DNA of 20,641 nt, taken from IMG/VR virus record IMGVR_UViG_3300047551_002633, positions 1 to 20,641 of that record, one strand, 5' to 3'. Each line of letters begins with the position of its first letter. Within the stretch, counting starts at the first letter, position 1. Position numbers and translations under genes: made by a program. The DNA is from a virus. The notes beneath the pieces were generated by a model. That model worked only from the letters and a program-made list of their open reading frames with translations. It ran no database searches and was not told where the DNA came from. Of the stretch, positions 2,677 to 20,641 are shown piece after piece.

Positions 2677-3031
2677 TACTATTCGGGTCTAGTGATACCC
2701 GCCTCCATTCATTATCAACTTTCAACCAAAGGCGTTTGTCTCTACCAACTGACAATCCAACTTGCAAGTCATATTGTGGATTGATTGGAAGAAAAGTATA
2801 GCCATTCATTTCTTTTGGGGGTTCTGGAGGCTTTGAGTGTCCCTGTAAAGTTAAAATTGTTGTTCCAACAGGTTGCATATCTACATCCGCAACATCTACT
2901 GGTGCAGGCAACATTTCTTTAACGATAGTTTCTTTTGTATGAATTCGTTCAATCACTTCTTTACCAGCGAAAATACCACCAAGCAAACCACCAAGTAACC
3001 CAGTGCCTCTAATAAATTTTCGTCTATTCAT
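2666..3031 (-). CDS. Hypothetical protein with Tat-like signal peptide
   Basis: 121 aa, function unknown. The N-terminus MNRRKFIRGTGLLGGLLGG has the architecture of a twin-arginine signal: an RR followed by K-F-I (consensus S/T-R-R-x-F-L-K), then an uncharged Gly/Leu-rich stretch to about residue 22. No clear AxA cleavage site follows, so the segment could remain as a membrane anchor. The rest is soluble-looking, with a Pro-rich stretch (SKPPEPPKE, about 86-94) and WLKVDNEWRRVSLDPN near the end. ATG at 3031 is preceded by GGAG at five bases and shares ATGA with the dCMP deaminase stop, so the start is well supported. A Tat substrate is odd among DNA-metabolism genes; export of a phage protein before lysis would be inferred. 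Plain signal-anchor protein is the alternative. Confidence 0.75.
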   Translation of the reverse strand: MNRRKFIRGTGLLGGLLGGIFAGKEVIERIHTKETIVKEMLPAPVDVADVDMQPVGTTILTLQGHSKPPEPPKEMNGYTFLPINPQYDLQVGLSVGRDKRLWLKVDNEWRRVSLDPNSNEG

Positions 3032-3507
3032 ATTTTCTCCACATTCACATTACATTTTTCTAAAAATTTTATGCCATCATCTGAGCGATATGTATTACGA
3101 TAATAAACACTTTTAATCCCGCTCTGATATATGAGTTTAGCACAATCTAAGCATGGAGAGTGGGTAATAAACATCGAAGCACCATCACCAGACTCAGTAG
3201 ATTTGGCTAACTTAGAGAGTGCATTTTGTTCAGCATGAAGCACCTCTGGTTTGGTTTTTAGTGTAGGTTCTTCTCCATAATAAGGAAGCCCTATGGCGTC
3301 TTCGCATTTATTATCCCACCCTGAGGGCATTCCATTCCAGCCAAAACTTATTATATTATTATCCTTAACTATAACAACACCGACATGCAATCTTTGTGCG
3401 TATGACATCTCCGAAATTCTAGTAGCAAGATCCAAGTATAGTTTATTATACTTTTCTTTTTTGAGTTTTTCCTTTTCTCCATCCATCTCGAATTGTATCC
3501 CTTTCAT
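3028..3507 (-). CDS. cd: dCMP deaminase
   Basis: Zinc-dependent deoxycytidylate deaminase converting dCMP to dUMP for thymidylate synthesis. With the ATG at 3507 the protein is 159 aa. The zinc site is clear: HAEQNAL gives ligand H91 and catalytic E93, and HSPCLDC gives ligands C119 and C122. GVVIVKDNNIISFGWNGMPSG upstream of it is the substrate-binding face typical of T4-like dCMP deaminases. An in-frame TTG at 3510 and an ATG at 3486 are alternative starts. The 3486 start would give a more usual N-terminus and has AAAGGG about 12 bases upstream; no good Shine-Dalgarno precedes 3507. The 5' end overlaps the upstream HNH endonuclease gene by about 40-60 bases in another frame, suggesting that insertion of that gene altered the original 5' end. 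Confidence 0.93.
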   Translation of the reverse strand: MKGIQFEMDGEKEKLKKEKYNKLYLDLATRISEMSYAQRLHVGVVIVKDNNIISFGWNGMPSGWDNKCEDAIGLPYYGEEPTLKTKPEVLHAEQNALSKLAKSTESGDGASMFITHSPCLDCAKLIYQSGIKSVYYRNTYRSDDGIKFLEKCNVNVEKI

Positions 3508-3991
3508 CAATCATTCTATTTTCAATTCCATTCGTAATCCAGATCATTCCTAAATTTCTTTTATTGGGTAATTGTGCAATTCTTTTTAAATGTCCAGAAT
3601 CCGCATTAATTTTACCTTGAGCTTTTCCACCCAGTTTAGCTATTTCGGATCTTAAATGGGGATTAAAAAAAGCATTAGTTTTCAATTCTCGACAAACTTC
3701 AGAACTTCTTTTTCCGCCGGCCGATGCTCCAAGTTTTTGGATATTTTTCATATGTCCACTATCTCTATTTTTAGATCCTTGAACCTTTCCTCCTAAAGAA
3801 GCGCAAATTCTCATAGCTTCATCAGTTTGTCCTGAAAGCAAATAGTACGCCCCCAAATCTTCTTTTTTACCGTATTTTTCGTAAAGTTTAAGATGTTCTT
3901 TGGCATGTTCTTCCCTGGTTAGTTCAATTAAGTTGGACGGATCATCCGATCCGCCCATATGTTTAGGAAGTATGTGATGTTTATGTTTCAT
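3446..3991 (-). CDS. HNH endonuclease, free-standing homing type
   Basis: 181 aa. The N-terminus holds an HNH motif: KHHILPKHMGG (H5, H6), DPSNLIELT (N20), REEHAKEH (H29, H33). Two copies of a modular repeat follow at about 66-87 and 120-141, each reading L-G-G-K-x-Q-G-K-x-N-x-D-S-G-H-x-K-x-I-x-Q-L with variations; such repeats serve DNA binding in phage homing enzymes. The C-terminus MIWITNGIENRMI with DGWRKGK is another module typical of these proteins. It probably nicks or cuts DNA of related phages near the dCMP deaminase locus and spreads by repair. AGGAGG lies only one base before the ATG, unusually close, and CATAAATA (4005-3998) just upstream resembles a T4 late promoter. The gene's 3' end overlaps the deaminase start. 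Confidence 0.88.
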   Translation of the reverse strand: MKHKHHILPKHMGGSDDPSNLIELTREEHAKEHLKLYEKYGKKEDLGAYYLLSGQTDEAMRICASLGGKVQGSKNRDSGHMKNIQKLGASAGGKRSSEVCRELKTNAFFNPHLRSEIAKLGGKAQGKINADSGHLKRIAQLPNKRNLGMIWITNGIENRMIDERDTIRDGWRKGKTQKRKV

Positions 3992-4029: not shown

Positions 4030-4164
4030 TCACAGTGCCTCATATTCATCTTTACCTACACCACACTCGGGGCAAGTAAAGTCATCAGGCAATTCTTCCC
4101 ATTTACCTTCTGTTGCTTCATCATGCACATGCCCGCACACTACACAAACGTAATCTGGTTTCAT
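4030..4164 (-). CDS. Rubredoxin, 44 aa
   Basis: Small iron-sulfur electron carrier. The 44-residue product starts [11 protein letters not shown] and contains the two rubredoxin knuckles: C7-x2-C10-G and C31-P-x-C34-G, with the aromatic Y5 and W22 and the segment [11 protein letters not shown] typical of rubredoxins, which bind one Fe by four cysteines. The length is slightly below the usual 50-55 aa, mostly from a shortened middle. ATG at 4164 overlaps the rubrerythrin stop as ATGA, so the two are translationally coupled. In most bacteria the rubredoxin-like module is the C-terminal domain of rubrerythrin; here it is a separate gene directly after it, which suggests that this protein donates electrons to that enzyme. 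Confidence 0.93.
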
Positions 4165-4616
4165 AGAGCCTCCAATACTTGTTTATATGCATTCGCATGG
4201 CGCTCTTCAACTTTCTTCAAAGCATGAAAACGCTTTTCTGCTTTCTCTAGAAGTTCGATAAATTCACGCGCATGTTCTTTAGATTCTTGAGTCTGATCTT
4301 GAAATTCTTTTGAAGATTCGATATCACCTTCAGTCATTGCAATAGCTTCGAATTGAGGATACATTTCTGTGTACTCATAAGTCTCGCCAGCAATTGCTTT
4401 TTCTAGGCACTCTTTAGTTGATGGTTTGCCGATCAACAATTCAAGGTGTCCCCATGCATGTTTGATTTCTTGATCTGCGGTATGTTCGAAGTGTTTTGCT
4501 ACATCTTCGAATCCTTCAGCCCGAGCGATTCTGGCAAAATAACGATACTTGATATGTGCCATGGATTCGCCAGCTAAAGCACTCTCAAGATTTTTTAGTG
4601 TTACCGAGGTTTTCAT
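4161..4616 (-). CDS. rbr: Rubrerythrin, diiron ferritin-like domain only
   Basis: 151 aa four-helix-bundle protein of the rubrerythrin family, normally a non-haem diiron peroxidase that reduces H2O2 with electrons from rubredoxin. Visible ligands: E17 in [12 protein letters not shown]50 and H53 in [11 protein letters not shown]78 and E81 in [14 protein letters not shown]. In the last helix, aligned on H115 (ESKEHAREF), the expected Glu three residues before the His is Ser112, with Glu at 111 and 114, so one metal ligand may be shifted or lost. The rubredoxin domain is absent and encoded as the next gene (4030-4164). An AAGGAT Shine-Dalgarno precedes the ATG at 4616. The metallophosphoesterase gene ends nine bases upstream. 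Phage-encoded rubrerythrin is rare; it could protect an infected microaerophilic or anaerobic host. Confidence 0.92.
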
Positions 4617-5445: not shown

Positions 5446-5910
5446 TTATTCCTGTAGAAGTTGTTGTTTTTTAGCAACAATAGGAATGCGTTTTGGGAGG
5501 CTTTCTTCTGGGATGATGTTCTCTAGCTCAACCGTTAGAATTCCGTGCTCTAGGCTCGCTCCATTGACTCTAACCGTGTCTGCCATCTGCACAGTTTTCT
5601 TGAAAGAGCGGTAGCCGATGCCATGATGCAAATAAGAACGATTATCATTCTTATCCGCTTTCTTTCCTGTGATTGTGAGAACCCCCTTTACAACCTCAAT
5701 GTCAATTTCATCTTGTGAAAAACCTGCTACTGCAAGTTCGACAAGATACTTGTTGTCATTTTCTTTTACGATATTATGAGGAGGAAAGGTATGTGAAGGA
5801 AGTTTTTCATGAGCCAAGTTTTCGAATGCATTAAACAGACGATCAAACCCGACAGTTGAAGGAACAAGAGGACCAAAAGAAATACGACCAAGTGATAAAT
5901 CATTACCCAT
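5446..5910 (-). CDS. hsp20: Small heat-shock protein Hsp20
   Basis: 154 aa ATP-independent chaperone of the IbpA/alpha-crystallin family, holding unfolding proteins in the cytoplasm. N-terminal arm to about residue 45 (FGPLVPSTVGFDRLFNAFEN is the IbpA-like segment); alpha-crystallin domain about 46-133, with LVELAVAGFSQDEIDIEV, GVLTITGKK, YLHHGIGYRSFKKTVQM and the signature NGASLEHGILTVEL at 116-129; C-terminal I-x-I anchor in RIPIV (142-144). Hsp20 genes are a known feature of marine T4-like phages and probably aid capsid assembly or host proteostasis. A strong AAGGAG sits seven bases before the ATG at 5910. Upstream is a structured gap ending in a terminator-like hairpin, so expression may begin elsewhere or depend on readthrough. 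The next gene downstream has its own promoter. Confidence 0.96.
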   Translation of the reverse strand: MGNDLSLGRISFGPLVPSTVGFDRLFNAFENLAHEKLPSHTFPPHNIVKENDNKYLVELAVAGFSQDEIDIEVVKGVLTITGKKADKNDNRSYLHHGIGYRSFKKTVQMADTVRVNGASLEHGILTVELENIIPEESLPKRIPIVAKKQQLLQE

Positions 5911-6607: not shown

Positions 6608-6991
6608 CTACGTCCCCAGCCCGCCTTCCGCGGTTTTTTCTTTTAATTGTTGTAATTGCTCTTCAGTAAGCAGACTTAGGACTTCTTGTGCTTTTTCAGT
6701 TGATAGACCATAGAAAGTCTTGATACATGCTATGTCTTCACTTTTTTCAGCCTTAACCCACTTATTGAAAGGTCTTTTTCTCGACCTTACTGTATTTATT
6801 AAAAAATCATTTTGCAATTTTTTATCTATAAATGGGCGCCGATTCATCTCATTTGCAAACATGATGCAATCAAAATGATAGGAAAGAGCACGATTCACCA
6901 GAAACGGTTCATAAGACTTTTCTGTGTATTCATCGACAATAAGGTTCTTTTTTCCTTGTAAGATTTGGTTTACGTAATCAAAAGGATTCAT
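6608..6991 (-). CDS. 62: Clamp loader small subunit gp62
   Basis: 127 aa partner of gp44 in the sliding-clamp loader. Recognised by MNPFDYVNQIL, YEPFLVNRALSYHFDC, FANEMNRRPFIDKKLQNDF and RKRPFNKWVKAEK, which are characteristic of gp62 in the marine branch. T4 gp62 is 187 aa; the shorter form is usual in cyanophage-like relatives and is not a truncation. The C-terminal part is helical (LSTEKAQEVLSLLTEEQLQQL). The ATG at 6991 overlaps the endonuclease VII-like gene's stop (ATGA). In T4 the 44 and 62 genes are adjacent and coupled to set a 4:1 product ratio; here another gene separates them, which should alter that coupling. Confidence 0.93.
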   Translation of the reverse strand: MNPFDYVNQILQGKKNLIVDEYTEKSYEPFLVNRALSYHFDCIMFANEMNRRPFIDKKLQNDFLINTVRSRKRPFNKWVKAEKSEDIACIKTFYGLSTEKAQEVLSLLTEEQLQQLKEKTAEGGLGT

Positions 6992-7380
6992 GAAGTCCTC
7001 TTCAGATAATCCAGTGCCCTATTTAATCCTTCAATATTGTCTCCTAAACACCCTATTGCAAGATTACAGTCTTCACATAACCATCCCCTGAACTTTTTTG
7101 TGATCGGATCGTGGTCTAAAACCAATTTCTTCAACCTCGCTTTACTTGTCTCTTCAGGTTTTTTACCACAACATTCACAGAATTCAGTCATTGGTTTAGC
7201 AGATTTTCGAATCTTCCTTACATCTTTTTCTCTCTCTTTAATGCAAGGCCTACACCGCGTATCTAGTTGATCAAGGCGACCTGTATGTTTTGGAAAATCA
7301 AATATAGATTTATTCTGTTTACAATAAACGCATACTTTTGTTAAAACTTTTTCGGATCCGTAGATAGTGTTTATAATCAT
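6988..7380 (-). CDS. Endonuclease VII-like (His-Me finger) nuclease between 44 and 62
   Basis: 130 aa nuclease of the recombination endonuclease VII family. The catalytic and zinc region is in the C-terminal half: FCECCGKKP (C68, C70/C71), LVLDHDP (D89, H90), KFRGWLCEDCNLAIG (C102, C105, N106) and GDNIEGLNRALDYL, the usual family ending. The N-terminal half adds a second zinc-ribbon-like set, C17-x2-C20 and C43-x2-C46, as in many phage homing relatives. T4 gp49 (157 aa) resolves Holliday junctions and packaging intermediates; this one could do so or could be a homing nuclease that inserted here. It is joined by ATGA overlaps both to gp44 upstream and gp62 downstream, so it is fully integrated in the operon. 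No strong Shine-Dalgarno of its own. Confidence 0.92.
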   Translation of the reverse strand: MIINTIYGSEKVLTKVCVYCKQNKSIFDFPKHTGRLDQLDTRCRPCIKEREKDVRKIRKSAKPMTEFCECCGKKPEETSKARLKKLVLDHDPITKKFRGWLCEDCNLAIGCLGDNIEGLNRALDYLKRTS

Positions 7381-9029: not shown

Positions 9030-9425
9030 TTACTTTTCACTATGTTGAATATTCAAATCGAGAGTTCCCTGATGGGATTCTACAGAGTAGATCATATCAT
9101 GTTCATACAAAAACATCAAGCAACACATAGCATGTGCTAGGTGATGTTTCCCAGACTCGGGATCGAATTGCTCTCCTTCTTTGTATGCCCATAGATGCCT
9201 TTGTAATGCATCAAAGTATCTACGCTTAGAGTCTGGAACTTTTTTCCAATTGTCACGCTCATACTTCTGAGCACCGAAAGTCAATACATCAACGGTAGCT
9301 TTCAAAGCAGCAGGCGGAAGTAAACCATACTCTAGTTTATTGCCGTCAAATTTACGGCCGCCTGTTGTAGCAGTTTGAGAAGCCTTCACTACATCTTCAA
9401 AGTCATCATCTTCAAATTTAGCCAT
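9030..9425 (-). CDS. dATP/dGTP pyrophosphohydrolase-like protein (DUF5664 family)
   Basis: 131 aa. After an acidic, disordered-looking start (DDDFEDVV) comes the family core: GGRKFDGNKLEYGLLPPAA (22-40), LTFGAQKYERDNW (48-60), RRYFDALQRHLWAY (68-81) and DPESGKHHLAHAMCCLMF (88-105). From memory this matches the phage family annotated as dATP/dGTP diphosphohydrolase N-terminal domain, related in role to the all-alpha MazG-type enzymes. Some members supply precursors in phages with 2-aminoadenine DNA; most members are in phages without it, and no partner gene (PurZ or DpoZ type) is in this window. The start overlaps the glycosyltransferase stop by one base (TAATG), and gp45 follows after 15 bases, so it may tune the purine dNTP pool during replication. 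Confidence 0.82.
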   Translation of the reverse strand: MAKFEDDDFEDVVKASQTATTGGRKFDGNKLEYGLLPPAALKATVDVLTFGAQKYERDNWKKVPDSKRRYFDALQRHLWAYKEGEQFDPESGKHHLAHAMCCLMFLYEHDMIYSVESHQGTLDLNIQHSEK

Positions 9426-11946: not shown

Positions 11947-14184
11947 TCATACAGCAATTTCCCCTATGAAACGATTCACTAGCACTCGGCTAACTTGTTT
12001 CTTTTTACTCATTCGGATAAATGCATTACGAATTTTACTTTGACTTACATTACCTTCAATTTCCAATTCATCAGATTCAATTCGAATATCGGAACCTCCA
12101 GGAATCATAAAGAATTTATTGTACCCACGATTATTTGACTCAAGAAACTTTTCTTGTTTTAGTTTTTTAGCAAGTTCGTTACATGCTTCATTAACTAAAG
12201 TATAGTTACCATGACCACGAATCTTAGCTTCTCCAGTTAGTTTTTCGACAATGTTTTTACCATCTACATCGAAGTATTTTTCTCGAATACTATTTCGAAT
12301 GTATTGACCACTACTCGAAGTGATAAAGAAACCGATAATATCCGATTTTGCAGTTTCAGCATACCAATTCATAACTGCTTCGCGCAAGCCATAATCGTTT
12401 TCATATTCGTTTACTTTGACTTGAAATTTTTCTTTCTTATCAACTAGAAAACAATTTTTACGTTTCGGATTCAACAGAGAATAATTTCCTTCAGCATTAA
12501 TATAATGATTAATTGCATCAGCATCACCGTCGTGAAGAATCACAGTTTTTACAATGTCAAGATTATTATTCTTCCGAAATTGAAGAGTAATGTCTCGCAA
12601 AGCTACCACAGCCTCAATCAGAGGAGTGTTAGACAACGGCTCAGAATTAGGAATATAAAACCTACGTGAACTGCTGTATGCATTGGACAAACAAACAAGA
12701 TTCTTAACTGCTTGATTGAACTTCGATATTGGCATTTTCGAATCTAAGTAATTTCGAAGATACACATTCCCAAGACTTAGAGAATTATTTTCTTTAGTGA
12801 AAGAGTCGCCAGAATTTTTTCCATGGTCAATAAAGTAACCGCTACCCTCATTACCGAATCCATAAACAACAAACGGAATATTTACTTTTTTGCAAAACAA
12901 TGCTAAGACTAGAATTTGTTCAATCGTACCAGTCAAATTATCTTTCATCGATCCTGAACGATCAAACATCATTACAAGACCGTGAGACTTACCTTTCGGA
13001 ACTTTTGTTACTTTACGAAAGATATTATCATCCAATTGATACTTGTAAATGCGAGAGATATCAATGTCACCGGTCTCGGAGATTTTCTGCTTCGAATATT
13101 TCGTAGCAGATTTACGCATCTCAAATTCTTTGGCTAGAAGAGAGATATATTTCTCATTTTTTTTGCGAAAATCTGAGTAAAGGGACTCACGTTTCTCTGG
13201 GTAATCTGGGAACATAGATTTCCAAAACTGATTCATATTTTTATGAACCACTTCAGAATCGGTTATGATATTCTCATATTTTGGATAAGGAAAATTCACA
13301 TACACATATTCGAAATTTTGTTCACTCAGAAGTTGAGATTCATTTCGGCGAAAGTTATTATCGGTTTCGCAATTAGGAACAAAGTCTTCATCGTAACCGT
13401 TAGACTCACTTGAAGGTTTATCTTTTACAATATTGCGACCGTTATCGAACTCGCCATCGTCTTCGCTATAATCACCGAAGTCTTGCGAATAGTCTTCATT
13501 AGAATTACCATCGTCTGAATCAAACTCACTATCATCTGGCTCACCATCTTCCGAATCTTCATCAGAAGACATAGGAAGAGGAGAACTGGCAAGAGATTTT
13601 TCCATCATCTCTTTTTGCTCTTCTTTAGAATAATCGAAAATAGCTTTCGTTATTTCGAGAACATCTTGCCAAGTCTCGCAGGCTTCGACCTCGCGCACCA
13701 TCTGCCATTCTTCTTCAGTAAATTGAATGTCATTAGTAGCGGCACTCTTAGTGTACAGATTCAGTCGGTCAATGAATGCCATCTTATTGATATCACGACC
13801 TTTCAAACCGAAAAAGTCGCGGGAGATCAATTCATTGTAACCACGAACGAAAGACTGGCGAAGCCCAGGGTAACGGCGTTTGATTTTTTTCTCAATGCGA
13901 GAATCTTCAACCACATTCAAAAACGCTTTGAAGTTTCGATCAAACTTGCCAGTGCCTAAGACTGCATTGTGCCAGCCTTCAGCAGGAGTTTCGAGTGCAT
14001 GTCCGACTTCATGACCGAGTAGAAGATCATAAAGATCGCCGCTCATATCTTTCCAGATAGGAACATAAAGTACACGATCTTTAAGATTGAAGGATGCGGT
14101 TTCGAGCTTACGATGTTCAATCGTAAGATTTTCTGTAGCCATCAGTTTGGCTAACTTAGACTTAGAATCAACAGTATGTTGCAT
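11947..14184 (-). CDS. cobT: CobT-like protein: HExxH metallopeptidase-like domain plus VWA domain
   Basis: 745 aa. N-terminal zinc-metallopeptidase-like domain with LLGHEVGHALET (H58, E59, H62) and a downstream acidic NVVEDSRIEKK (E93, D94) that could supply the third ligand. A highly acidic, Ser-rich linker occupies about 200-250 (runs such as DDSEFDSDDGNSNEDY). The C-terminal VWA domain starts with the MIDAS motif D408-R-S-G-S in MMFDRSGSMKDN. An acidic linker before a VWA domain is also the plan of bacterial CobT. With the next gene (CobS-like) it forms an AAA+/VWA pair such as CobS-CobT, CbbQ-CbbO or NorQ-NorD. Substrate unknown; the peptidase motif suggests proteolytic or remodelling action. 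GAGGG seven bases before the ATG and a promoter at 14237-14209 support the start. Confidence 0.88.
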   Translation of the reverse strand: MQHTVDSKSKLAKLMATENLTIEHRKLETASFNLKDRVLYVPIWKDMSGDLYDLLLGHEVGHALETPAEGWHNAVLGTGKFDRNFKAFLNVVEDSRIEKKIKRRYPGLRQSFVRGYNELISRDFFGLKGRDINKMAFIDRLNLYTKSAATNDIQFTEEEWQMVREVEACETWQDVLEITKAIFDYSKEEQKEMMEKSLASSPLPMSSDEDSEDGEPDDSEFDSDDGNSNEDYSQDFGDYSEDDGEFDNGRNIVKDKPSSESNGYDEDFVPNCETDNNFRRNESQLLSEQNFEYVYVNFPYPKYENIITDSEVVHKNMNQFWKSMFPDYPEKRESLYSDFRKKNEKYISLLAKEFEMRKSATKYSKQKISETGDIDISRIYKYQLDDNIFRKVTKVPKGKSHGLVMMFDRSGSMKDNLTGTIEQILVLALFCKKVNIPFVVYGFGNEGSGYFIDHGKNSGDSFTKENNSLSLGNVYLRNYLDSKMPISKFNQAVKNLVCLSNAYSSSRRFYIPNSEPLSNTPLIEAVVALRDITLQFRKNNNLDIVKTVILHDGDADAINHYINAEGNYSLLNPKRKNCFLVDKKEKFQVKVNEYENDYGLREAVMNWYAETAKSDIIGFFITSSSGQYIRNSIREKYFDVDGKNIVEKLTGEAKIRGHGNYTLVNEACNELAKKLKQEKFLESNNRGYNKFFMIPGGSDIRIESDELEIEGNVSQSKIRNAFIRMSKKKQVSRVLVNRFIGEIAV

Positions 14185-14262: not shown

Positions 14263-15837
14263 TTATGGCTTATAGAAAACGAATATTGGTTCGTACTTTA
14301 ACCACATACCATTTACTTTACAGAAATTTTTAGATTTTGGCAAGCCCGTTTCTGTATCTACTCTATTACTGCCTGGCATTTGCGCTAGTGCCATTTTAAG
14401 TTTGCCTTTATATATCATACCGAGTGAAGTTAGAATATCAATTGAATCTTGTTCTAATGGCAATAAATCTCCATCAAATACCGCATCTGCAATATTCCAA
14501 AGTAAATATCTGTCATTTTTCAAATATTCAACACAAGTTTCTAATGTTTTTCTGAGAAAACCTTCTTTCCATAAATCATATTGTGAAAACTTTTTATATG
14601 ATTGCTCTTCATCTTCAGAGTATGCTTCTTTTGCGAAGTAAGGTGGTGAAGTGAAAATTAAATCAATCTCACCTTTATACTTTTGAAATTTTTGATCCTT
14701 ATGAATCTCTTCGGATCCGTGTTGAAAAATTTCATATGTGTGAGTTTTAGGAAATAATGTACCTACTGCTCGCGTGGTTTTAGTATTAAAGAAATCAGCA
14801 AACTCATGATATTTTGTTCTGCCGTTCTCAGTATTATGATCCGTATTCGGGTCAGTACCAACATAATGTATATTGCGCTCATCATCAACAGTCAGTGCAC
14901 CAAGTAAACGCCCACCCCAACCCGATGAAGGATCATAGATTACAATTCTATCTTGTTTTCTAAAATCATCAGTGAATCTTTCATACAAATATTTTGCAGT
15001 TAATGGAGGAAAGTTTACTGCATATTGACAGAATGATACTCGAAACGCTTTTAAACCGACGGGAAATAATCTCTGCCCTTTTTCATATAGTCGAATACGA
15101 AATGAGTTAGTTTGTTTATGTAAAGCATTCGTTAAACAATGTTTAGGTATGTTTAATGAGTCTAATTGATCTTTTGTAAGTGTTAAAAACTTTGTGGTCT
15201 TTAATTCTTCATTATACCCAGTATAGTCTTGATCTTCTTTACTTTCAATCCAATAATCATGAGTAGCATAAACTCTTGCATTTTCTTCGAACCAACGAAT
15301 AAAATCTACTCCATCTTTAACGTAGTAGTAAAGGGAACCGATCTGATCAATCTTTTGCCCAACTTTGACTTGTTGAGAATATGCATAGAAAGAATCTCTT
15401 TTGAAATGTCTTGATGCATACGTGACAAATGTATCAAGCAGAGAATCTTTTGCGAAATAATCGTAAATAGATTTTCCCTTGTTCACATCTTTCGTATAAT
15501 TGATTCGCGTTTTCATCATGGTTGGAAACCATTGATTTACAGCATTACCGATTACACTTGTGTTACGAATTACATCTTTCGTATTCGTGTATTCATCTTC
15601 AACCAGAAACTCGTGAACAGGAAAAGAAGTCATCTTATTGAATTGCTCAATAATTTCATCTTCATCATATCCAACTCTTGGTGGATTTCCTTTTTCATCC
15701 CATAGATACACTACAGTTTTTCGAAGATTGATTACCCAGTTTCTAAACTGGTCATCATCCATTACCAAAACTTCTTCAAAAAGTTTGTTAACATCAGATT
15801 CGATTAGCTCTCTATTTTTTTCGTAAAAATGTTTCAT
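14263..15837 (-). CDS. Large DNA methyltransferase (TSPPY type)
   Basis: 524 aa from ATG 15837, which shares ATGA with the GNAT gene's stop; an in-frame ATG at 15891 would run through that gene and is not favoured. The SAM-binding motif I is IYDPSSGWGGRLLGAL (D302), and the catalytic motif IV is FTSPPYF (T396 to Y400), so motif I precedes IV. TSPPY is typical of N4-cytosine and some N6-adenine methylases. The first about 280 residues are not part of the minimal methylase; they include NQWFPTMMKTRINY and FKRDSFYAYSQQVK and may bind DNA. No restriction partner is nearby, so it likely protects or marks phage DNA. It is the last gene of a six-gene unit with gp47 and gp46, and behind two transferase or hydroxylase-like genes. 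Confidence 0.88.
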   Translation of the reverse strand: MKHFYEKNRELIESDVNKLFEEVLVMDDDQFRNWVINLRKTVVYLWDEKGNPPRVGYDEDEIIEQFNKMTSFPVHEFLVEDEYTNTKDVIRNTSVIGNAVNQWFPTMMKTRINYTKDVNKGKSIYDYFAKDSLLDTFVTYASRHFKRDSFYAYSQQVKVGQKIDQIGSLYYYVKDGVDFIRWFEENARVYATHDYWIESKEDQDYTGYNEELKTTKFLTLTKDQLDSLNIPKHCLTNALHKQTNSFRIRLYEKGQRLFPVGLKAFRVSFCQYAVNFPPLTAKYLYERFTDDFRKQDRIVIYDPSSGWGGRLLGALTVDDERNIHYVGTDPNTDHNTENGRTKYHEFADFFNTKTTRAVGTLFPKTHTYEIFQHGSEEIHKDQKFQKYKGEIDLIFTSPPYFAKEAYSEDEEQSYKKFSQYDLWKEGFLRKTLETCVEYLKNDRYLLWNIADAVFDGDLLPLEQDSIDILTSLGMIYKGKLKMALAQMPGSNRVDTETGLPKSKNFCKVNGMWLKYEPIFVFYKP

Positions 15838-16271
15838 TGAGTTTCTTTTCCGTAAAGGTAAACTACACCAGGAACTTTTCCATTTGCCCAACTGATATCA
15901 CTGATAGCGATCATTTTATTTTTTTCGTAGAATGCTCTCGCTCGACTATTTTCTGCTCGAACAGATAACCAAACATTCGTACCCATTTCTCTAAAGAAAT
16001 CATTCAATATTCTTGATGCATTTCCATTTCCCTGAGAGGCTGATGCTATCTGCATTAAGTGTACATCCCCTCTTTGCGCCATAGCATTTCCAATCTTTTG
16101 CCTTCTCTTATAAACATTATAAATGATTACGACACCATCTTCAAGTATAACTTTTCCTGCCTCAACATTTCTTTTGATATAATCTTGCCGAATATGCGAA
16201 AAATAAGTTTTCTTATACGGCTGAAAAATCGTCAGTATCGAATCAAAATCATTCATCGTAGCAATATTCAT
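15834..16271 (-). CDS. GNAT-family acetyltransferase
   Basis: 145 aa acyl-CoA-dependent N-acetyltransferase. The acetyl-CoA loop is seen in HLMQIASASQGNGNASRIL (Q-G-N-G-N-A, the Q/R-x-x-G-x-A motif), followed by the GNAT ending VWLSVRAENSRARAFYEKNKMIAI, where the Asn and Tyr of the last motif are present. Beginning MNIATMNDFDSILTIFQPYKK fits the first helix of the fold. Substrate unknown: protein N-termini or lysines, small molecules, or modified DNA bases (the Mu Mom protein is GNAT-like). The ATG at 16271 overlaps the upstream hydroxylase gene and its stop overlaps the methyltransferase start, both as ATGA. The upstream gene carries a second GNAT-like domain. Confidence 0.88.
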   Translation of the reverse strand: MNIATMNDFDSILTIFQPYKKTYFSHIRQDYIKRNVEAGKVILEDGVVIIYNVYKRRQKIGNAMAQRGDVHLMQIASASQGNGNASRILNDFFREMGTNVWLSVRAENSRARAFYEKNKMIAISDISWANGKVPGVVYLYGKETQ

Positions 16272-17353
16272 TTTATAATCCTAGTATGTAAATTGTCATC
16301 AGTTATACAATCTATAACTAAATGTATTCTTGGCGTATTACCGCCATTAATAACTCGGTGAGGTTTTCTTGTATCGAGAAACCAACACTCTCCTGGTTTC
16401 ATATTCACTTCGAGTTTATTACCAGAGGGTTCCCAGACGGTGAATACTACATCATCATTCGTAATAATTGGGAAATGAAGTCTAGACAATTTGCCTTTTG
16501 TTCCTCCCATCTCAGGATCAACTTGATCGGTATGCCGAGTAAGTTCACCATTGCCTGGTTCAAGCCGCATAAATCGTATTCTCTCACAATTCAATTCACT
16601 TGTCAATACAGAAACTTCTGGAAACAATTTCATCAGTTCAGTGTCTTGTAAACTGAAGTCTGAATAGCCACTCTTAAACTTTTCATTCTTAAGTGGCTTG
16701 CCGATAAACTCTGGTTCAGGTCTGAAGCCTCGAAGAGACAATGCTGACCAGGTATCTTTCTTATTATACGAACTAAAATGATTTGAGAAATCTGGCAACT
16801 CTTTTAGACGATCAGAAATTTTATTCGCAACACTCAATAAGTCTTCCCTGCTTTGCAACTTTTTCACACTGACATTTTCAGCAGGATCAACTACTGGAAA
16901 ATCTCTATATGAACCTCGATAGTATATTGAATATATTTCGCTATATGTTGTAATTTTAGAGCCGACATAACAAAAATTACAATCTTCTGCAAGTTTCTTG
17001 TGCTCAGAATTTTCAGCCCAAACATAAAGCCAAGAATCTGTTTGAATTTGATTGATAGCTTCTTGAAGAAGTTTAGTATCTCCCGTTAACTTAGTTATAA
17101 CAGAATCGCCTCTTTTTTTATTGCCTATGACAGTATCACCATACATCGTAATGTTTGAGCCAACTTTAACATTAGCAATATCAATAAAAGTATCTTCAGA
17201 TAAAATTTTAAGAGTTTCTTTCGAAAGCAAGTCTGCTACTGTATTCTTTTTTACTTGAGCAAACTTAGAAAAAGCATACTTATTGTAGACTTTATACTTC
17301 TCTTCTACACTCTTCAAATAATCTAAATCAAATCCATTTTGCCAGGGTTTCAT
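16268..17353 (-). CDS. GNAT-like domain fused to aspartyl/asparaginyl beta-hydroxylase-like dioxygenase
   Basis: 361 aa. The C-terminal part (about 200-350) is a 2-oxoglutarate/Fe(II) double-stranded helix of the aspartyl/asparaginyl beta-hydroxylase type: R-H274-T-D276 supplies two iron ligands, RLHFPI (291-296) and GECWFLDTRKPHRVIN with H332 supply the third, and PRIHLVIDC (R342) the 2OG-binding Arg. The N-terminal part (about 1-150) resembles a GNAT fold, most clearly at WLYVWAENSEHKKLAEDCNF followed by YVGSKITTYSEIYSIYYRG, but its acetyl-CoA loop is not obvious and may be degenerate. It would hydroxylate a protein or nucleic-acid substrate; which one is unknown. ATGA overlaps link it to the deformylase upstream and the GNAT gene downstream. 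The GNAT-like call is less sure than the hydroxylase. Confidence 0.82.
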   Translation of the reverse strand: MKPWQNGFDLDYLKSVEEKYKVYNKYAFSKFAQVKKNTVADLLSKETLKILSEDTFIDIANVKVGSNITMYGDTVIGNKKRGDSVITKLTGDTKLLQEAINQIQTDSWLYVWAENSEHKKLAEDCNFCYVGSKITTYSEIYSIYYRGSYRDFPVVDPAENVSVKKLQSREDLLSVANKISDRLKELPDFSNHFSSYNKKDTWSALSLRGFRPEPEFIGKPLKNEKFKSGYSDFSLQDTELMKLFPEVSVLTSELNCERIRFMRLEPGNGELTRHTDQVDPEMGGTKGKLSRLHFPIITNDDVVFTVWEPSGNKLEVNMKPGECWFLDTRKPHRVINGGNTPRIHLVIDCITDDNLHTRIIK

Positions 17354-17931
17354 TTCATTCTCTTGATTTTCTTCAAAAGTTTTGTCTGTTTTTCTTTCGC
17401 CATTCTCAATGCGAGAGGTTTTACATGATCGGTGAAATCAATCCCATTCATATGATCGAGTTCATGTTGAAATACTTGTGCTGTCATTCCTTCCAACCAA
17501 TGTGAATCTTCTTTTCCGCGATCATTGTGATATGCAACTAGAATCCTACTATATCTAGGAACATTCAAAAACAAACCAGGATGTGAAAGGCATCCTTCTC
17601 GCATTTTAACAGGCTCTTCTTCTTTTTCCAAAATTCTGGGATTGATGCAAACAATTTGATCTTCAGAAGTTCCCATCACAAACATTCGAAGTCTGTACCC
17701 ACATTGATTAGCTGATAAACCCAACCCATTGTATTGAACCATCGCTTTCTTTAGACGTTCGATAAAATTCTGCACTTCTGCGTTCTTGATTATCTTAACG
17801 TCAAACTCAGGCATGACTTCTTTTAATGTAGAACACTTATCATCAAAAACAACCAAAGGTTCACTTGTCAACTTGACTGGAGCAGTTCCTTTAGGTGCTT
17901 CTGTATTAATTACTAAAACATCTTCACTCAT
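17350..17931 (-). CDS. pdf: Peptide deformylase
   Basis: 193 aa metallo-enzyme removing the formyl group from nascent N-terminal Met. All three motifs are intact: GLGLSANQ (69-76), EGCLS (112-116, metal ligand C114), and QHELDH (155-160, ligands H156 and H160, catalytic E157). The N-terminus has an extension of about 25-30 residues before LVVFDDKCSTL, longer than the compact deformylases common in T4-like marine phages, and the C-terminal tail is Lys-rich (KQTKLLKKIKRMK), possibly for ribosome binding. ATGA overlaps link it to gp46 upstream and the hydroxylase gene downstream. In phages, deformylase may replace host activity when host enzyme is limiting; here it may also prepare proteins for the neighbouring GNAT, which is inference. 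Confidence 0.96.
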   Translation of the reverse strand: MSEDVLVINTEAPKGTAPVKLTSEPLVVFDDKCSTLKEVMPEFDVKIIKNAEVQNFIERLKKAMVQYNGLGLSANQCGYRLRMFVMGTSEDQIVCINPRILEKEEEPVKMREGCLSHPGLFLNVPRYSRILVAYHNDRGKEDSHWLEGMTAQVFQHELDHMNGIDFTDHVKPLALRMAKEKQTKLLKKIKRMK

Positions 17932-19640
17932 TTTACTATCCTTGAAAAATTATTTACCTTTTCAAAACGAATTATATTTCTAAATTTATCTTGCAGAATA
18001 TCACCTTTATGCGAAATGACAAAGAGATTCACATTTTCTAGCATATTTAGGATTTGCATTAGGTACTCTGTTCCATTATTATCTAGGGAAGAATCAAACA
18101 CTTCATCTAATATGAGAAGATTTGTATTTGCAGAGTTTTTCAACTTAGCAACTGCGCGCCAAGTTAACATTAATGCCATATCAATTCTCTGTTTTTCACC
18201 TTCACTGAAAGAAGAATAGCTAAACTCATCTCGGTATCTAGATTTAATCGTTTCTTTGAAAGACTCATCCAAATTAAAATTCACAAAGAAATCTAAAGAA
18301 GAAAGATACTTATTAACCAACTTATTAATAACTGGTAAGTATTGACGAATGATTTTAGTTTTAATTCCAGTATCTTTTAACAATAACGATGCAGTTTCAT
18401 AATATGTTTTTTGTTCAATCAATTCTTTTTTCTTTTCATCTAAGACATTCAATTCATTTTTTAGTTCTTCGAGTTTGACAACTTCTTTTTTTAAGTCCTG
18501 TTTAGCATTTGCGAGAGATAGGTATTCTTTAGTCAATCGTTCAATATATTTCGTAGTTTCAACAACGGTCATTGTGTTTGATGCAATCTGTACTTGTTTT
18601 AATTGTATTGTATCGGAAACTATTTTAATTCGATTTAATTTATTTTGATATTCATCAATCTCTTTACTCAGCTTTTCTAGACCGTCTTCCGACTTATGTA
18701 TCTTTTCAGTCAATATTTTTATTTGCTTTTTCTTAAATTCTGGTTGTATTAACTGTTGGCACGTCGGGCAATCATCTTTTTCGTGATAAAATTTCAAATT
18801 CTTTTTATACGACGATAGATTAGTTTCTATCTGTGTTTCGAATTGAAATAATTTTTTATGCTTTTTTTCAGTAAACTGTTTATGAAGAATTTCATTCGTC
18901 AAAGATTCGATTTCTGAATTGATTGAATTAATAACTTCCTGTGTTTTTTCTATATCAGATTTTGCAGAATCTATTTGCGCTTTCTTTTCAAGAATCAATT
19001 CATCATTCGACTTACTCAGTTTTTCAATATGATCTTTTTGCATATCATATTTCGTTTTTGTAAGTTCAGCACTATGTTTGTTAGACTGAATCTCTTCTTT
19101 GTTAACTGAGATTTTATCTTTTAGAATATTATTCATTGTCGAAAAGATTTGAATATCTAAAAGGTCTTCGATAATAGCACGACGATCAGCAGCAGACAAC
19201 TGCATGAAAGGAACAAAAGATGCAGAACCAAGTATTACAATCTGAGTGAATGATTTGTAATTCAGTTTCAGGATTTGTTTTTCTAAAATTTCTTGATAGT
19301 CTTTAGATGCCGCTTCTTGATTCAACAACTGCCCATCGAGATAAATTTCGAATACCGCAGGTTTTATTCCGCGAACAATTTTATACTCTCTTTTTCCAAT
19401 TCTAAATTCACACTCTACGACACAATCTTTTTGATTGATACTATTGATCAGTTGAGGTTTGTTGATATTACGAAATGCTTTCCCAAACAAAACGAAACAA
19501 AGGGCATCAAGCATTGTAGATTTGCCTGCGCCATTTGTTCCAATAACTAGAGTATTACTATTACCAGAAAGATTTATTTCTGTGAAGTAATTGCCTGTAG
19601 ATAAAAAGTTTTTGAATTTTATTGATTTGAAAAAGATCAT
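17928..19640 (-). CDS. 46: Recombination nuclease subunit gp46 (Rad50/SbcC-like ATPase)
   Basis: 570 aa (T4: 560) SMC-like ATPase that with gp47 resects DNA ends for recombination-dependent replication and host DNA breakdown. Walker A IGTNGAGKST (33-42); long coiled coil about 170-420 interrupted by the zinc hook CPTCQQ (C291, C294); the ABC signature SSFSEGEKQRIDMAL (476-490); Walker B LLILDEVFDSSLD (508-520, D512, E513) and a conserved His in VISHKGDI. The ATG at 19640 is coupled to the gp47 stop and its own stop to the deformylase start, both as ATGA. This makes the classic 47-46 pair the head of the modification-gene unit. Confidence 0.97.
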   Translation of the reverse strand: MIFFKSIKFKNFLSTGNYFTEINLSGNSNTLVIGTNGAGKSTMLDALCFVLFGKAFRNINKPQLINSINQKDCVVECEFRIGKREYKIVRGIKPAVFEIYLDGQLLNQEAASKDYQEILEKQILKLNYKSFTQIVILGSASFVPFMQLSAADRRAIIEDLLDIQIFSTMNNILKDKISVNKEEIQSNKHSAELTKTKYDMQKDHIEKLSKSNDELILEKKAQIDSAKSDIEKTQEVINSINSEIESLTNEILHKQFTEKKHKKLFQFETQIETNLSSYKKNLKFYHEKDDCPTCQQLIQPEFKKKQIKILTEKIHKSEDGLEKLSKEIDEYQNKLNRIKIVSDTIQLKQVQIASNTMTVVETTKYIERLTKEYLSLANAKQDLKKEVVKLEELKNELNVLDEKKKELIEQKTYYETASLLLKDTGIKTKIIRQYLPVINKLVNKYLSSLDFFVNFNLDESFKETIKSRYRDEFSYSSFSEGEKQRIDMALMLTWRAVAKLKNSANTNLLILDEVFDSSLDNNGTEYLMQILNMLENVNLFVISHKGDILQDKFRNIIRFEKVNNFSRIVK

Positions 19641-20641
19641 TCTGAAGTTTCAACGTTCAAAGATTCAACATATAATTCACGCATTAAGTTTTTAAGTTTA
19701 TCAGACTCGACGTTTGTTTGAAGCCCATCTATGTACTTAGATAAAATAGTTATTGTGTCTTCTGCTTGATTGACCAACTCTTCATCTTGCGTAATTGACA
19801 TATCGGTATACTCTTCAACAATCGATACATCTGCGGCGCCAGATTTAATCAAGTTGTCAATTACCGAATCGAAAAGAAAAGCATTTGTCTTTTTCACAAC
19901 AACGATTTTTACATAAGTGTTTTTGAACTGCTCATAATTAAACTTTTTATAATAATCGAAATCATTTTCGGTATCATCATAACAAAGTTTATTGAACATT
20001 GTATATGGGTTTCGAATAAATGTCAACTCTCTTGTTGAGGTATCAAATATATGAAAGCCTCTCTCATCTTGGTAATCTGCCCAAGTCATTTCACCAGGAG
20101 TACCAACATAGGTAATATTGCCGCTGCTAGACTTATGGTGAAAATGCCCAGTCAAAACTACATCATATCGTTCCAGAAGTTTTTTATCTATACCGTCATG
20201 GCAAACATTGCCTCGATCCATCTCAAAACCAGAAATCTCAAAATGCCCGAAACATATTTGAGATTTAGATTGTGAAATCTGATTCATGATTTCTTCTTCA
20301 TTCTCATCACAGATCCAAGGAACGATATCAATCATATCATCAAAAGAAACTTTACTGAAGTCTCTATAGATTGTGATATTATCGTACTCTCTCAATAGCA
20401 ATTCTGAAGAGTTTACTTGAAGAGTATTCTTGAAAGAAACATCATGATTACCAAGAAGAGTGTGAAGTTCAATTCCTTCATCACGGCATCTATCAAAAAA
20501 ATATTTTCTAGCTAAGTAAAGCGAATTGAAGTTAATGAACTTTCGGCGATCAAACAAATCTCCTAGCTGAAAAATAATTTTAATCCCATTCGATAAAAGA
20601 TATGGGAAGAAAACTTCTTCATAAAACTTTTTATAGTATTC
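19637..20641 (-). CDS. 47: Recombination nuclease subunit gp47 (Mre11/SbcD-like), 5' end beyond window
   Basis: Nuclease partner of gp46. The frame is open to the right window edge, giving 334 codons here; the T4 protein is 339 aa, so roughly 20-30 N-terminal residues including the first motif (DxH) lie outside. A frame starting at TTG 20557 would begin inside the second metal motif, G-D-L-F-D-R-R, and is not the true start. Other motifs: LLGNHD, CFGHFEISG, VLTGHFHHKS. The C-terminal region is acidic and probably contacts gp46. The stop overlaps the gp46 ATG by four bases. All visible motifs of the calcineurin-like nuclease fold are intact. Confidence 0.96.
   Translation of the reverse strand, partial: EYYKKFYEEVFFPYLLSNGIKIIFQLGDLFDRRKFINFNSLYLARKYFFDRCRDEGIELHTLLGNHDVSFKNTLQVNSSELLLREYDNITIYRDFSKVSFDDMIDIVPWICDENEEEIMNQISQSKSQICFGHFEISGFEMDRGNVCHDGIDKKLLERYDVVLTGHFHHKSSSGNITYVGTPGEMTWADYQDERGFHIFDTSTRELTFIRNPYTMFNKLCYDDTENDFDYYKKFNYEQFKNTYVKIVVVKKTNAFLFDSVIDNLIKSGAADVSIVEEYTDMSITQDEELVNQAEDTITILSKYIDGLQTNVESDKLKNLMRELYVESLNVETSE

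What the first reader, a model, noticed from the sequence alone, without database searches (positions are those of the whole stretch)
14263..20641. Unbroken ATGA-coupled unit joining recombination nuclease genes to deformylase, hydroxylase, acetyltransferase and DNA methyltransferase
Five successive junctions (47/46, 46/pdf, pdf/hydroxylase fusion, fusion/GNAT, GNAT/methyltransferase) each overlap by exactly 4 nt as ATGA. T4 has 47-46 followed directly by the 45 region. Here four modifying enzymes have been threaded into the same translationally coupled message. Inference: they act together, either as a DNA base hypermodification set (methylase, then oxidation and acylation) protecting DNA during gp46/47 activity, or as a protein N-terminus and side-chain modification set (deformylase, acetyltransferase, hydroxylase).
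Basis: partly seen in the sequence, partly recalled or inferred. Interest (0 to 1): 0.75.

Follow-up and report, generated by a model that had tools for sequence, protein, structure and literature searches.

The report
Swappable phage DNA-modification gene cassette
Between two DNA-replication gene blocks, uncultured T4-like phages carry an exchangeable set of genes that most likely decorates the phage's own DNA bases with a bulky chemical group; the DNA-methyltransferase-like gene is mostly kept while the finishing enzymes beside it are swapped, which would help such phages escape bacterial DNA-cutting defences.

Summary
In detail: five ATGA overlaps join 47-46-pdf-hydroxylase fusion-GNAT-methyltransferase (minus strand). 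Such overlaps are common here (9 of 27 window junctions; about 21% in relatives), so the coupling alone says little.

Comparison with about 300 related loci says more. The 46-to-45 interval is a swap site. A 524-aa class I methyltransferase with an SPPYF motif keeps company with a few tailoring genes: an Asp/Arg-type amino-acid hydroxylase (alone or fused to a GNAT-like domain), a GNAT, a PLP enzyme and a possible glycosyltransferase. Across 87 dereplicated intervals, methyltransferase and tailoring genes occur together or not at all (54 both, 30 neither, 3 exceptions). GNAT and PLP enzyme never co-occur (0 of 68). The set also occurs away from 46/47. Elsewhere at this site stand DruA or a TAGT glycosyltransferase. 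A Mycobacterium phage has the hydroxylase directly behind an amino acid:DNA transferase; Erythrobacter phages fuse the PLP enzyme into a DNA methyltransferase.

Best reading: a modular DNA-base hypermodification cassette. Peptide deformylase is not part of it: it occurs with or without the cassette. The product is unknown; an amino-acid-type group on an exocyclic amine is my leading but unproven guess.

The parts
14263..15837 (-). Methyltransferase, 524 aa: conserved N-terminal region (1-250, function unknown) plus class I MTase domain with DPSSGWGG and SPPYF motifs; core of the cassette
   Evidence: Pfam N6_N4_Mtase 29.1 bits against cut-off 26.7; PADLOC MTase_II 7e-11; 274 stretches with relatives in IMG/VR, 63-98% identical in the 80 kept; AF2 pLDDT 83, nearest viral folds annotated cytosine-N4 DNA methyltransferases
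15834..16271 (-). GNAT acyltransferase, 145 aa, with QGNGNA acyl-CoA loop; tailoring gene
   Evidence: PF00583 22.1 against 20.7 bits; motif kept in 16 of 16 relatives; relatives almost always beside the MTase
16268..17353 (-). Fusion, 361 aa: N-terminal GNAT-like domain (about 1-165, acyl-CoA loop absent) plus C-terminal Asp/Arg-type 2-oxoglutarate/Fe hydroxylase (about 180-361, HxD...H...R intact); tailoring gene
   Evidence: PF05118 44.9 against 22.6 bits; hhalign N-domain to stand-alone GNAT, probability 92.8, E 4e-7; AF2 pLDDT 85, best PDB folds L-proline cis-4-hydroxylase and Cpz10
17350..17931 (-). Peptide deformylase, 193 aa, all three motifs; companion of gene 46, not judged part of the cassette
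   Evidence: PF01327 127 bits; motifs; occurs without the cassette in L106-L142
17928..19640 (-). gp46 (SbcC-like), upstream border of the swap site
   Evidence: phrog_77 5e-176
19637..20641 (-). gp47 (SbcD-like), 5' end cut by the window edge
   Evidence: phrog_100 1e-104
11947..14184 (-). vWA protein (phrog_459), downstream border of the swap site
   Evidence: phrog_459 3e-180; follows the MTase in most relatives

Best explanation
The fusion, GNAT and methyltransferase genes are one version of a modular phage DNA-base hypermodification cassette, inserted at a swap site behind gene 46 (and pdf). The methyltransferase-fold enzyme recognises phage DNA and alkylates an exocyclic base amine, by its SPPY motif probably N4 of cytosine (inferred). 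Neighbouring enzymes supply or tailor the group: here the Asp/Arg-type hydroxylase oxidises it and the GNAT acylates it; in relatives a PLP enzyme, with or without a possible glycosyltransferase, stands in for the GNAT. The bulky base then blocks host restriction or other DNA-cutting defences (inferred from known phage modifications). Shown here: gene content, motifs, co-occurrence, swapping, GNAT/PLP exclusion, fusions and neighbours in other phages. Inferred: substrate, order of steps, product, defence role. Specific guess (about 25%): the installed group is an alpha-amino-acid type group, such as SAM's aminocarboxypropyl, because hydroxylase, GNAT and PLP enzyme all fit one. Peptide deformylase and gp46/47 are neighbours, not parts.
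For: 1) In 87 dereplicated 46-to-45 intervals, MTase with tailoring gene 54, neither 30, MTase only 2, tailoring only 1 (sampling partly by these genes). Loci fetched by gp46 alone show the same: MTase only where GNAT is (L002, L034, L130, L131). 2) The MTase stays while partners change: 19 changes on a 68-row tree; MTases 94% identical carry GNAT (L017) or PLP+GT (L028). 3) GNAT and PLP never together: 0 of 68, 21 GNAT and 38 PLP. 4) Hydroxylase and GNAT occur split (L002: 200 + 144 aa) or as fusion; fusion N-domain is homologous to the GNAT. 5) In Mycobacterium phage LilMcDreamy a fusion homologue (31%, E 2e-17) directly follows PF18724 amino acid:DNA transferase, E 2.7e-12. 6) In Erythrobacter phage ZS04 the PLP enzyme lies inside a ParB-DNA-methylase ORF; in Microcystis phage Mae-JY30 it follows an N6_N4 methylase gene. 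7) Other occupants of the site: TAGT glycosyltransferase (1e-47) and DruA (4e-18). 8) Cpz10, a top fold match, hydroxylates an amino-acid group on a nucleoside. 9) The set occurs away from 46/47.
Against: No chemistry is shown; no close relative is cultured and no base is known to be modified. Cultured relatives are distant (MTase C-half about 31%; GNAT none). MTases without recognised partner exist (L080, L302), so plain methylation could suffice. Hydroxylase and PLP also occur in a T4-like locus with no MTase called (L216-L218), and a GNAT relative in L316. Window genes show no kinase or amino acid:DNA transferase of the thymidine pathway. On the tree only 5 independent GNAT/PLP contrasts exist (sign test p 0.125).
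Confidence: 0.68

Rival explanations
1. The methyltransferase alone modifies DNA (plain m4C or m6A self-methylation against restriction); hydroxylase, GNAT and PLP enzyme are independent auxiliary genes that collect at the same insertion hotspot.
For: MTase occurs without known partner in L080 and L302; the site also holds unrelated cargo (dCMP deaminase, thymidylate-synthase-like 239-aa gene).
Against: Hydroxylase, GNAT and PLP enzyme are almost absent at the site without the MTase (1 of 31 intervals) and follow it to other genome positions; PLP enzyme fused into a DNA methylase in Erythrobacter phages.
Confidence: 0.16
2. Protein modification set: deformylase, GNAT and hydroxylase modify N-termini or side chains of virion or host ribosomal proteins.
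For: GNAT has a weak RimI resemblance (TIGR01575 30 bits, cut-off 86); PF05118 enzymes include protein hydroxylases (general knowledge).
Against: pdf is only weakly linked to the set; GNAT far below the RimI cut-off; a DNA methylase is the constant partner; best hydroxylase folds act on free amino acids or nucleoside-linked amino acids.
Confidence: 0.07
3. Small-molecule-level pathway: hydroxylase, PLP enzyme and GNAT act on a free precursor (for example a modified SAM, amino acid or dNTP) that the MTase then transfers to DNA, rather than on DNA itself.
For: Nearest hydroxylase folds act on small molecules; PLP enzymes can use SAM as aminocarboxypropyl donor (Mur24, PMC10491745).
Against: Nothing here decides between this and action on DNA; PLP/MTase fusion and ADDT neighbour fit either.
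Confidence: 0.09

Closest known systems
Thymidine hypermodification pathways with amino acid:DNA transferase (ADDT) and tailoring enzymes (as in Pseudomonas phage M6; from general knowledge)
   Same: A base-targeting first enzyme followed by PLP and acyltransferase tailoring; LilMcDreamy pairs the same hydroxylase family with ADDT
   Different: No ADDT seen beside the cassettes; first enzyme here is an SPPY amino-methyltransferase, pointing to an exocyclic amine, not thymine C5
Mom-type adenine momylation (phage Mu; jumbo-phage review PMC7824862)
   Same: A GNAT-superfamily acyltransferase thought to modify a base amine
   Different: No Mom family was reported by Pfam or PHROGs scans; here the GNAT goes with an MTase and is replaceable by a PLP enzyme
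Caprazamycin/muraymycin nucleoside antibiotic biosynthesis (Cpz10, Mur24; PMC9814697, PMC10491745)
   Same: Related hydroxylase fold acting on an amino-acid group carried by a nucleoside; a PLP enzyme supplies a SAM-derived group
   Different: Small-molecule pathway; Mur24 is ACC-synthase-like whereas the phage PLP enzyme is PALP-type (tryptophan synthase beta-like)
Sugar decoration of cytosine in T4-like phages (T4 glucosyltransferases; pentose in Shewanella phage Thanatos, PMC12838424)
   Same: T4-related phages placing a bulky group on their DNA bases
   Different: Those attach sugars to cytosine; this cassette uses MTase, hydroxylase, GNAT and PLP enzymes

Membership tests
N4/N6 DNA amino-methyltransferase | SAM motif I and (S/D/N)PP(Y/F) motif IV, family score above cut-off | tested here: met
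   DPSSGWGG at 302, SPPY at 397; PF01555 29.1 against 26.7 bits; nearest viral folds annotated cytosine-N4 MTases
N4/N6 DNA amino-methyltransferase | Methyl transfer to DNA | not testable with these tools
   No assay; transfer of another SAM-derived group cannot be excluded from sequence
Asp/Arg hydroxylase (PF05118, 2-oxoglutarate/Fe) | HxD...H metal triad and distal Arg; family score | tested here: met
   H274, D276, H332, R342 invariant in 25 rows; 44.9 against 22.6 bits
GNAT acyltransferase | Family score and Q/R-x-x-G-x-G/A acyl-CoA loop | tested here: met
   PF00583 22.1 against 20.7 bits; QGNGNA. The fusion's N-domain lacks the loop in 24 of 25 rows
Mom (momylation) | Membership of the Mom family | tested here: inconclusive
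   Pfam and PHROGs scans gave general GNAT families only; no dedicated Mom comparison was run
ADDT-type thymidine hypermodification | Amino acid:DNA transferase in the cluster | tested here: not met
   LilMcDreamy ADDT protein as phmmer query labelled no ORF in the cassette neighbourhoods listed; the record is a 20.6-kb fragment, so the rest of the genome is untested
Peptide deformylase | Motifs GxGL[A/S]AxQ, EGCLS, HExDH | tested here: met
   GLGLSANQ, EGCLS, HELDH; PF01327 127 bits
RimI (ribosomal S18-alanine acetyltransferase) | TIGR01575 above curated cut-off | tested here: not met
   30.4 against 86.4 bits

The most novel reading that the evidence does not exclude
A new class of phage DNA hypermodification: an amino-acid-type side chain attached to an exocyclic base amine (probably cytosine N4) by a methyltransferase-fold enzyme and then beta-hydroxylated, N-acylated or processed by a PLP enzyme, with the end group swapped between close relatives as an antigen-like escape from nucleases.
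Probability: 0.25. Interest if true: 0.87.

Novelty: new variant of a known kind. Interest (0 to 1): 0.66.

Why it matters
If right, many freshwater and marine T4-like phages carry an undescribed, modular way of decorating DNA, widening the chemistry known for phage DNA beyond methyl, sugar, deazaguanine and thymidine side chains. The natural swaps (GNAT against PLP enzyme beside a 94% identical methyltransferase) give a ready comparison of which enzyme makes which end group. It also links the defence protein family DruA and TAGT glycosyltransferases to the same genome slot, a lead for what DruA-like proteins do.

Tried and rejected
Reading the ATGA run as evidence of joint function: rejected as the main argument, because 4-nt overlaps are common here and also join interchangeable genes to 46 or pdf. 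Including pdf in the set: rejected. Link to gp46/47: rejected, the set moves elsewhere. Neighbours of the distant cultured MTase relatives (Staphylococcus, Vibrio, Bacteroides phages): no annotated acyltransferase or hydroxylase beside them, though many genes there are hypothetical. Solved-structure sequence search for the MTase: no match; its N-terminal 250 aa remain unassigned. Bacterial genome scan with the hydroxylase fusion: 2 MAG contigs, both carrying phage-type genes (46 or 62 relatives) with PLP and MTase genes. LilMcDreamy gp4 as query: no further cultured relatives. My recollection of a methylcarbamoyl adenine in phage Thanatos: not borne out, the paper held reports 6mA plus a pentose on cytosine. 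Papers of Iyer 2013 and Lee 2018/2022 could not be read, so prior mention of this gene set is not excluded.

Full report
WHAT IS THERE. On the minus strand 47, 46, pdf, a hydroxylase fusion, a GNAT and a methyltransferase follow each other with five 4-nt ATGA overlaps, then a 78-nt gap and a vWA gene, MoxR, and further on 45, 44, endonuclease VII, 62. The window is a 20,641-base virus record, so nothing beyond it can be read. All catalytic motifs checked are intact. The overlaps themselves are ordinary: 9 of 27 window junctions are ATGA, and about a fifth of adjacent same-strand ORFs in the fetched loci overlap by 4 nt (simple ORF caller).

WHAT THE PROTEINS ARE. pdf is a normal peptide deformylase (PF01327, 127 bits). 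The fusion's C-terminal half is a PF05118 Asp/Arg-type hydroxylase; its N-terminal half had no family, but profile comparison shows it to be a relative of the stand-alone GNAT (hhalign probability 92.8, E 4e-7), without the acyl-CoA loop in 24 of 25 rows. The AlphaFold model (pLDDT 85) matches L-proline cis-4-hydroxylase and Cpz10 best. Cpz10 hydroxylates an amino-acid group carried by a nucleoside (PMC9814697). The GNAT is a weak but valid PF00583 member. The 524-aa methyltransferase has a class I fold with an SPPYF motif (N6_N4_Mtase); its closest viral folds are annotated cytosine-N4 DNA methyltransferases, its closest solved fold is a tRNA m2G10 methyltransferase, also an exocyclic-amine enzyme. 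Its first 250 residues are conserved and unassigned.

RELATIVES. IMG/VR holds many relatives of the methyltransferase (274 stretches; the 80 kept are 63-98% identical), the fusion (24 loci), the GNAT (68) and of a further gene found beside them, a 245-268-aa PLP enzyme (517; phrog_7093, PALP in cultured relatives). Between 46 (with or without pdf) and vWA or 45, the methyltransferase is preceded by one of: GNAT; split hydroxylase + GNAT; fusion + GNAT (window, L292); fusion; fusion + PLP; PLP; PLP + a 334-aa protein that may be a glycosyltransferase (no family match, my reading of the sequence); rarely nothing. Other loci have in its place a DruA-family gene (PF14236, 4e-18), or a TAGT glycosyltransferase (1e-47) with another methyltransferase, or an empty site (L118).

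STATISTICS. After dereplication by gp46, 87 complete intervals give methyltransferase with tailoring gene 54, neither 30, methyltransferase only 2, tailoring only 1 (Fisher p 8e-20). The sample was partly gathered with these genes, so the p-value is inflated; but loci fetched by gp46 alone agree, the methyltransferase appearing only where a GNAT does. pdf is present in 40 of 56 intervals with and 12 of 31 without the methyltransferase: a weaker link (p 0.006), and in both directions pdf occurs apart from the set. On a 68-row methyltransferase tree the partner set changes at least 19 times. GNAT (21) and PLP (38) never occur together (p 8e-11 without, sign test p 0.125 with correction for kinship, 5 contrasts). 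L017 and L028 have 94% identical methyltransferases, related DNA on both sides, and different partners (GNAT against PLP + 334 aa): a clean exchange.

INDEPENDENCE FROM 46/47 AND PDF. In L257, L259-L263 and L266-L267 methyltransferase, hydroxylase and PLP gene lie together away from 46/45; in L298-L300 DruA, a 424-aa SPPYF methyltransferase and the GNAT follow a DnaB-type helicase gene. The deformylase is reported as core to pelagimyophages in a DNA metabolism operon (PMC7029224).

INDEPENDENT LINKS TO DNA MODIFICATION. Mycobacterium phage LilMcDreamy gp4, a fusion homologue, overlaps gp3, which matches PF18724 amino acid:DNA transferase (E 2.7e-12). Erythrobacter phage ZS04 has ParB-like, methylase and PLP domains in one 812-aa ORF, the PLP part lying between the two methylase parts; Microcystis phage Mae-JY30 has methylase and PLP as overlapping neighbours. 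These are other phage groups, so the association is not an accident of one lineage.

MECHANISM. Best supported: a DNA-base hypermodification cassette with the methyltransferase-fold enzyme as the DNA-reading constant part and exchangeable finishing enzymes. SPPY suggests cytosine N4 (general knowledge of amino-methyltransferases). That hydroxylase, GNAT and PLP enzyme can all handle alpha-amino acids suggests an amino-acid-type side chain, possibly SAM-derived as in nucleoside antibiotics, where a PLP enzyme transfers SAM's aminocarboxypropyl group (PMC10491745) and Cpz10 hydroxylates the resulting group. GNAT and PLP exclude each other, so they probably do alternative things to the same position. 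These chemical steps are inferred, not shown. The defence-evasion role is inferred from known phage base modifications.

VERDICT. New variant of a known kind (phage DNA hypermodification), with an unproven chance of a new chemical class. Key papers on phage hypermodification could not be read here, so earlier description of this gene set is not excluded.

Noticed in passing
L106, L114, L116, L120, L124, L126, L128, L129, L133-L136, L139 (between pdf and vWA); L298-L300, L318: A DruA-family gene (Druantia defence family, PF14236) occupies the methyltransferase slot in many relatives, and elsewhere stands beside an SPPYF methyltransferase and GNAT; suggests DruA-like proteins work in DNA modification or its counter-defence.
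   Followed up: partly
L107, L108, L110, L111: Same slot holds a 123-aa protein, a TAGT (TET-associated) glycosyltransferase and a 278-284-aa SAM methyltransferase, another apparent base-decorating set.
   Followed up: partly
L193:1-3759 (Mycobacterium phage LilMcDreamy genes 1-4): Gene 2, annotated queuine tRNA-ribosyltransferase, has only a weak Tet_JBP match in Pfam and gene 3 is an amino acid:DNA transferase: an uncharacterised DNA modification cluster in a cultured phage.
   Followed up: partly
L191:2326-4764 (Erythrobacter phage ZS04): One 812-aa ORF holds ParB-like, methylase and PLP-enzyme parts, the PLP domain lying between the methylase motifs.
   Followed up: partly
window 9030-9425: dATP/dGTP diphosphohydrolase domain (PF18909, 2.5e-35) next to the clamp gene 45; a nucleotide-pool enzyme.
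   Followed up: no
window 6988-7380: Endonuclease VII family gene (PF02945) inserted between 44 and 62 with ATGA overlaps on both sides.
   Followed up: no
window 3028-3510, 4161-4616, 5446-5910: dCMP deaminase, rubrerythrin-like protein and Hsp20 genes between the polymerase and 62 genes.
   Followed up: no
L259, L261: Two tandem copies of the methyltransferase follow the hydroxylase and PLP genes.
   Followed up: no
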